From positions 1 through 23,942 of IMG/VR virus record IMGVR_UViG_3300043395_002573: DNA of 23,942 bases. The stretch is one strand, 5' to 3'. The notes under the pieces were generated by a model. The model made no database searches, was not told the DNA's origin, and saw only the letters and a program-made list of their open reading frames with translations. The position numbers and the translations under genes were made by a program. Shown here one piece after another: positions 18,471 through 18,765 of the stretch (positions are counted from its first letter, which is position 1; each line of letters opens with the position of its first letter). This DNA comes from a virus.

Positions 18471-18533
18471 GGGGCAAGCCCCGCGCGTGGCACCTTTGCA
18501 TAAGGGTAACCGACACCCTCCGGCCCGCGCCGG
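18471..18533 (-). other. Hairpin-rich spacer between Y RNA and rsr
   Basis: Three consecutive small stems can form in the transcript: CCGGC/GCCGG around GCGG (18520-18533), AGGGT/ACCCT around a 7-base loop (18503-18519), and GGGGC/GCCCC around 18471-18482. None is followed by a T-run. They could be sites where the Y RNA 3' end is defined by processing, or a partial terminator that makes Y RNA more abundant than rsr mRNA. Confidence 0.4.
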
Positions 18534-18694
18534 CTTCACAAACAAGGGCGATCATGGGGTCCGGGCCGGGCAGAGTCTGTTGCTCTAATCCTCTGAGCTA
18601 CGCCCGGCTTTCACCGGGCGGCGGGATTCGAACCCGCGACCTACAGATTAAAGATAACCGGCATCCGTTCGGCTCGCCCTTCACACTTCACAAA
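18534..18694 (-). repeat. 9-bp direct repeats flanking the Y RNA
   Basis: TTTGTGAAG occurs at 18686-18694 and again at 18534-18542, directly outside the two ends of the Y RNA helix. An outer pair, GTTACCCT, lies at 18736-18743 and 18503-18510. Nested direct repeats could be traces of insertion, recognition sites for processing, or chance. Confidence 0.6.
18544..18681 (-). ncRNA. Y RNA (YrlA-like) with circularly permuted tRNA-like domain
   Basis: Minus-strand RNA of about 138 bases. In order: AAGGGCGA (18681-18674), a GCCGAACGG segment, then a tRNA body in permuted order. This body has TCTGT (anticodon-stem 3' strand, 18647-18643), variable AGGTC, T stem-loop GCGGG-TTCGAAT-CCCGC (18637-18621) and acceptor CGCCCGG (18620-18614). 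A GAAA loop closed by a U-G pair follows, then acceptor CCGGGCG (18607-18601), TA, D arm GCTC-AGAGGATTA-GAGC (18598-18582) and ACAGA (18580-18576). The end is TCGCCCTT (18551-18544), a perfect 8-bp partner of the start. All canonical tRNA spacings are kept, but the acceptor end is a loop and the anticodon loop is opened into the long stem. This is the layout described for YrlA-type bacterial Y RNAs, which mimic tRNA and bind Ro through the terminal helix. Position next to rsr is decisive. Confidence 0.9.
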
Positions 18695-18765
18695 GCTCGG
18701 GTTGTGTAATTGGCCCGGCGGTTTATCCAGCGAATAGGGTAACGCCGTTCCGTCCGACCCCGAGC
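18695..18765 (-). ncRNA. Structured 5' domain preceding the Y RNA
   Basis: Starting at the expected transcription start of the promoter at 18773, GCTCGGG (18765-18759) pairs perfectly with CCCGAGC (18701-18695). Inside, CGGCG (18747-18743) pairs with CGCCG (18720-18716), with GG/CC pairs next to it. The transcript thus opens with a closed 71-base domain, then a short linker and the tRNA-like Y RNA. It may be a second Ro-binding or stabilising module, or a leader removed during processing. I recognise no known RNA family in it. Confidence 0.5.

What the first reader, a model, noticed from the sequence alone, without database searches (positions are those of the whole stretch)
18503..18765. Y RNA appears to be made as the 5' leader of rsr mRNA, with an additional structured domain
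The only promoter found upstream (18773-18781) would start transcription exactly at a 7-bp closed helix (18765-18695), then run through the Y RNA and into rsr; no strong terminator lies between. This predicts co-transcription and processing, coupling RNA and protein dose. Ro bound to its own leader could also control rsr translation. The first domain may be a second Ro-binding module not described for Y RNAs.
Basis: inference. Interest (0 to 1): 0.72.

Follow-up and report, generated by a model that had tools for sequence, protein, structure and literature searches.

The report
Three tandem Y RNAs before rsr
A phage gene for the RNA-binding protein Ro is preceded, on the same strand and with almost no space between, by three small RNAs of the kind that Ro binds, an arrangement found in many related phages and bacteria and best explained by one shared transcript that is cut into pieces.

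Summary
Covariance models built from other phages and bacteria, without the window, hit exactly these boundaries: d1 40.4 bits, d3 41.2 bits, d2 100.8 bits. Linkers are 13 and 12 nt; d3 ends 18 nt before the rsr ATG. The only extended -10 promoter element (TGC-TATAGT, 18781-18773) lies 7 nt before d1. Across 111 non-redundant loci a -10-like hexamer is enriched 5-8 nt before the first module (22/109) but not before inner ones (1/84), and half of all neighbouring modules are at most 20 nt apart. Co-transcription of the array with rsr, then processing, is the best inference; no transcript was measured. Autoregulation of rsr translation is possible but untested. Several Y RNAs near rsr are a known kind, so this is a new member. 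Side finding: DUF2828/DUF7788 (Ro-like) phage genes have their own, different array class.

The parts
18773..18781 (-). extended -10 promoter element TGC-TATAGT, 7 nt before the first module; no recognisable -35
   Evidence: position matches the -10 peak of first modules in relatives
18695..18765 (-). d1: small Y RNA module, lower helix GCTCGGG/CCCGAGC, motif GTCGGACGGAACGGCGTTACC
   Evidence: model R1 40.4 bits, E 2e-7, exact ends; motif plus helix; fold
18682..18694 (-). linker 1, TTTGTGAAGTGTG (13 nt)
18544..18681 (-). d2: YrlA-type Y RNA, lower helix AAGGGCGA/TCGCCCTT, motif GCCGAACGGATGCCGGTTATC
   Evidence: model R2 100.8 bits, E 1.6e-21, full length; Rfam YrlA RF02553 37.9 bits on the tRNA-like part, below gathering 69
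18575..18645 (-). tRNA-like module of d2, in the order T arm, closed acceptor stem, D arm; no anticodon arm
   Evidence: Rfam alignment, fold
18532..18543 (-). linker 2, GTTTGTGAAGCC (12 nt), sharing TTTGTGAAG with linker 1
   Evidence: model R1 41.2 bits, E 1.3e-7; R2 44.7 bits; weak match to nematode sbRNA RF01656, 26.4 bits, below gathering 38; fold
18413..18430 (-). gap to rsr with ribosome-binding site GGAGGGG
   Evidence: sequence
16742..18412 (-). rsr, Ro60 orthologue (TROVE plus vWA_Ro60), 556 aa
   Evidence: Pfam PF05731 1e-45, PF25045 5e-55; phrog_850

Best explanation
The 350 nt before rsr are a tandem array of three Y RNAs (small, YrlA-type with tRNA mimic, small) transcribed from one promoter just before the first, together with rsr, and then cut in the 12-18 nt linkers into separate Y RNAs and an rsr mRNA. 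Shown here: sequence, structure and family membership of the three modules, their spacing, and the position of the only extended -10 element. Inferred: a single transcript, processing, and binding of each module to the phage Rsr, with d2 able to tether a partner through its tRNA-like part as in the known Ro-Y RNA-PNPase machine.
For: Independent covariance models hit d1, d2 and d3 at exact ends with 40.4, 100.8 and 41.2 bits; apart from the 5' half of d2 (15.3 bits) the next-best match of R1 in 5 kb scanned without filters scores 11 bits. Upstream of rsr in 175 loci the motif plus helix occurs 298 times, against 5 in shuffles, 8 antisense, 3 inside rsr. The upper helix, not used in selection, covaries in 6 of 6 pairs. 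Same order small-YrlA-small-rsr in Mycobacterium phage Khaleesi. 86 of 173 neighbouring modules are at most 20 nt apart. TANNNT at 5-8 nt before the first module 22/109, inner modules 1/84. No minus-strand terminator in the leader. tRNA genes lie within 40 nt of Y modules in 17 of 134 loci. In Salmonella rsr, yrlBA and rtcBA form one operon (PMC7790460).
Against: No transcript data for this phage. The promoter lacks a -35, and only 39 of 109 first modules have a TANNNT at 4-16 nt. Internal TANNNT hexamers exist, although all are part of, or next to, the conserved Y motif. Folding the entire leader gives no excess stability (z -0.39). Some relatives have modules downstream of rsr.
Confidence: 0.76

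Rival explanations
1. Each Y RNA, or the Y RNAs and rsr, are separate transcription units with their own promoters.
For: TANNNT hexamers occur inside d1, d2 and d3; abundant ncRNAs near a Ro-like gene in Listeria phage CKA15 have promoters of their own (PMC12282133); not all relatives have a short last gap.
Against: Linkers of 12-13 nt leave no room for promoters outside the modules; inner modules lack the -10 peak (1/84); the internal hexamers coincide with the conserved GTTAYC motif or its flank, are not extended and have no -35; no terminator.
Confidence: 0.13
2. The leader is not only a source of Y RNAs: unprocessed d3, ending 18 nt before the rsr start codon, is an operator at which Rsr controls its own translation or mRNA stability.
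For: d3 is a full Ro-type module directly before the ribosome-binding site; in Xanthomonas phage Olaya the last of three modules ends about 44 nt before a divergent TROVE gene.
Against: The last gap exceeds 100 nt in 73 of 134 loci; in a few loci modules lie only downstream; the predicted fold leaves the ribosome-binding site outside d3.
Confidence: 0.18
3. The leader stays in one piece and works as a three-module RNA scaffold that gathers three Rsr rings.
For: Three modules in one predicted transcript with short linkers.
Against: Known Y RNAs are separate small RNAs (PMC4726728); module number and order vary widely between relatives, from one to six or seven.
Confidence: 0.08
4. Only the YrlA-type d2 is functional; d1 and d3 are decayed or chance structures.
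For: d1 deviates from the consensus (GTCGG and GCGTT).
Against: Both score above 40 bits against a model of intact modules and have closed helices; GTCGG is common in relatives such as L041.
Confidence: 0.05

Closest known systems
Bacterial and phage Y RNAs encoded near rsr (Chen et al. 2014, RNA 20:1715; not held, content from memory and from citations in PMC12282133 and PMC8394870)
   Same: Ro-binding stem, tRNA-like YrlA module, next to rsr, more than one Y RNA per locus, reported in mycobacteriophages
   Different: Here the array is read as the rsr leader with two small Y RNAs flanking the YrlA type; whether this layout was reported before could not be checked
Salmonella rsr-yrlBA-rtcBA operon (PMC7790460)
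   Same: Ro protein and Y RNAs in one operon
   Different: There the Y RNAs lie after rsr and before rtcBA; here they lie before rsr, and no rtcBA was recognised among the neighbours scanned
Deinococcus radiodurans Rsr, Y RNA, PNPase (RYPER; PMC4726728, PMC8394870)
   Same: Ro orthologue with Y RNA as tether
   Different: PNPase binding by the phage RNAs not tested; the phage may use the host enzyme
Mycobacterium phage Khaleesi (Bixzunavirus) rsr locus
   Same: Same order small, YrlA, small, rsr on one strand
   Different: Different linkers and interiors, similarity mainly in the motifs; Rsr about 45% identical

Membership tests
Y RNA | encoded beside a Ro60/Rsr gene | tested here: met
   TROVE and vWA_Ro60
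Y RNA | closed lower helix with conserved internal-loop motif and upper helix | tested here: met
   covariation in relatives
Y RNA | bound by Ro/Rsr | not testable with these tools
   only indirect: motif class follows protein class
Y RNA | stable small RNA with defined ends | not testable with these tools
   no transcript data for this phage
YrlA (Rfam RF02553), d2 | Rfam gathering score | tested here: not met
   37.9 bits against 69; the Rfam model appears narrow, as modules of Khaleesi, Cashline and GMA2 also fall below it
YrlA-type Y RNA, d2 | tRNA-like module with T arm, acceptor stem, D arm inside a Ro-type stem | tested here: met
nematode sbRNA RF01656, d3 | Rfam gathering score | tested here: not met
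   26.4 bits against 38; resemblance only
autoregulatory mRNA leader | protein product changes expression through the leader | not testable with these tools
   needs a reporter assay

The most novel reading that the evidence does not exclude
The Y RNA array is both the source of Ro's partner RNAs and a titration switch: free Rsr binds the last module in the nascent leader and blocks processing or translation, so that Rsr dose is set by the number of Y RNAs.
Probability: 0.15. Interest if true: 0.65.

Novelty: new member of a known kind. Interest (0 to 1): 0.42.

Why it matters
It gives a clear, testable layout for how phages and many bacteria could make Ro and its RNA partners in step, and two covariance models that find Y RNAs which Rfam's YrlA family misses. 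The comparison also shows that a second Ro-like family, DUF2828/DUF7788, common in phages of Escherichia, Salmonella, Listeria and Mycobacterium, sits beside its own distinct array of small RNAs, some with tRNA-like parts.

Tried and rejected
Rfam at gathering score finds nothing in the window, and ARAGORN no tRNA; neither excludes Y RNAs. The first search for window-like rsr in viral contigs with a single sequence failed; the alignment succeeded. A sigma70 scan with -35 found no promoter. The idea that Listeria P100 holds the same Y class was rejected (R1 no hit; its protein is DUF2828/DUF7788). A linker motif AACT is enriched in relatives (23 of 73, expected 5.3) but absent in the window, so it is not used as evidence here. 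The whole-leader fold is uninformative.

Full report
The window is a 23,942-base virus record from IMG/VR with terminase, portal, capsid and protease genes on the minus strand; its terminase is at best 41% identical over 74% of its length to a phage record, so the phage is not close to any phage in that collection. The gene at 18412-16742 is rsr, with TROVE (1e-45) and vWA_Ro60 (5e-55) domains.

Observation. TGC-TATAGT at 18781-18773 is the only extended -10 element in the surrounding 500 bases and predicts a start near 18766. A sigma70 scan that demands a -35 finds nothing, and no terminator lies on the minus strand in the leader.

What it is. Rfam at gathering score finds nothing, but a permissive search matches YrlA over the tRNA-like part of d2 (37.9 bits) and a nematode stem-bulge RNA, a Y RNA relative, at 18532-18431 (26.4 bits, E 0.003). 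Upstream regions of rsr from 15 phage records, 80 IMG/VR contigs and 80 bacterial and archaeal genome contigs contain a recurrent module: a closed lower helix, then GYCGRN, an upper helix ending in GTTAY, a variable interior, and the returning strands. Motif plus helix occurs 298 times in the 0.9 kb upstream of rsr in 175 loci, against 5 in a shuffle, 8 antisense and 3 inside rsr. In the window it occurs exactly three times, all in this leader: d1 18765-18695, d2 18681-18544, d3 18531-18431.

Independent test. A covariance model of 45 small modules from other loci (R1) scores d3 41.2 bits (E 1.3e-7) and d1 40.4 bits (E 2e-7), with ends exactly at the predicted helices; in an unfiltered search of 5 kb the next matches are the 5' half of d2 (15.3) and then 11.1 bits. 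A model of 45 YrlA-type modules (R2) scores d2 100.8 bits (E 1.6e-21), full length. E-values of these models are rough. In the training alignment the upper helix, which was not a selection criterion, has changes on both sides in 6 of 6 pairs with 83% of cells paired; slid controls over both helices pair 36-39%.

How it is made. Linkers are 13 and 12 nt, and d3 ends 18 nt before the ATG, a gap that holds GGAGGGG. In relatives, 86 of 173 gaps between neighbouring modules are 20 nt or less. In 111 non-redundant loci (window included) a TANNNT hexamer ends 5-8 nt before the first module in 22 of 109 cases but before 1 of 84 inner modules; over 4-16 nt it is 39/109 against 9/84 (Fisher p 5e-5). The window's TATAGT sits at 7 nt. 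Y modules also lie within 40 nt of tRNA genes on the same strand in 17 of 134 loci, as expected of RNAs cut from longer transcripts. One transcript with later processing is the simplest reading. It remains an inference, since no RNA was measured.

Relatives. Mycobacterium phage Khaleesi has the same order small, YrlA, small, rsr; Gordonia phage Cashline has two YrlA-type modules; single loci carry up to six or seven. Xanthomonas phage Olaya has three YrlA-type modules before a divergent TROVE gene. By the motif search, of 174 loci with a long enough reading frame 121 have modules only upstream, 3 only downstream, 11 on both sides and 39 none; the models find modules in many of the last group, some of them downstream of rsr.

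Control by Rsr of its own translation is possible because d3 adjoins the ribosome-binding site, but many relatives have a longer last gap (more than 100 nt to the start of the protein match in 73 of 134) and the fold gives no sign of occlusion. I give it 0.18.

Known or new. Salmonella carries rsr, yrlBA and rtcBA in one operon (PMC7790460). Y RNAs have been reported in mycobacteriophages (PMC12282133, citing Chen et al. 2014). The original paper is not held; from memory it reports Y RNAs near rsr in more than 250 bacterial and phage species, with at least one tRNA-like Y RNA in each, which implies several per locus. The finding is thus a new member of a known kind; whether the regularities of spacing and first-module promoters have been described before I could not check.

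Side finding. The Ro-like gene of Listeria phage P100 is DUF2828/DUF7788, not TROVE, and is preceded by three stem-loops with a different motif, ACAGCAA. Enterococcus phage TJE1 and Mycobacterium phage Whirlwind carry arrays with the same motif, some with tRNA-like interiors. In 80 DUF2828 loci the motif plus helix occurs 115 times upstream, against 2 in a shuffle and 1 antisense. The two classes separate: TROVE loci hold 326 of the first class and 12 of the second; DUF2828 loci hold 3 and 107. The four held papers that name DUF2828 are about plants by title.

Noticed in passing
L302:816-1495, L303:2980-3250, L178:28120-28480, L305:3200-4000, L306-L385: A second class of tandem small RNAs, with lower helix plus ACAGCAA and often a tRNA-like interior, lies beside Ro-like DUF2828/DUF7788 genes of phages; the motif class follows the protein family (326/12 in TROVE loci, 3/107 in DUF2828 loci).
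   Followed up: partly
L178:29073-29624 (Listeria phage P100 record 124072-124623, minus): ROOL RNA match (86 bits, gathering 99.1) near the Ro-like gene; it may be one of the very abundant unexplained transcripts that PMC12282133 suggested could be Y RNAs. The correspondence of coordinates was not checked.
   Followed up: partly
L002, L025, L030, L032, L036, L039, L042, L116, L164, upstream of the first Y module: A palindrome [CG]TGT-N8-ACAG, mostly overlapping or next to the -10, lies within 100 nt of the first module in 9 of 111 loci (0.0024 per 100 nt over all loci): a possible operator, like a LexA box in form. Absent in the window.
   Followed up: partly
linkers 18694-18682 and 18543-18532; linkers of relatives: Both window linkers contain TTTGTGAAG; linkers of relatives are enriched for AACT (23 of 73, expected 5.3). 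Possible processing signals.
   Followed up: partly
L181:2157-2749 and L181:73-478: Microbacterium phage A3Wally has about five Y modules in a row, and further matches among tRNA genes.
   Followed up: partly
L180:2492-2570 (Erwinia phage Simmy50): A YrlA-like tRNA mimic without a lower-helix match; two neighbouring proteins had no Pfam match, and no Erwinia phage was among the rsr hits at 1e-5.
   Followed up: partly
18811-18782, minus strand: A hairpin ACACCCCC...GGGGGCGTGT directly after the stop of the upstream gene and before the -10; it could insulate the unit.
   Followed up: no
5268-7811 and 14148-15203, minus strand: An N6 DNA methylase-type gene (847 aa) inside the structural gene block, and a ParB-like plus DUF4417 gene.
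   Followed up: no
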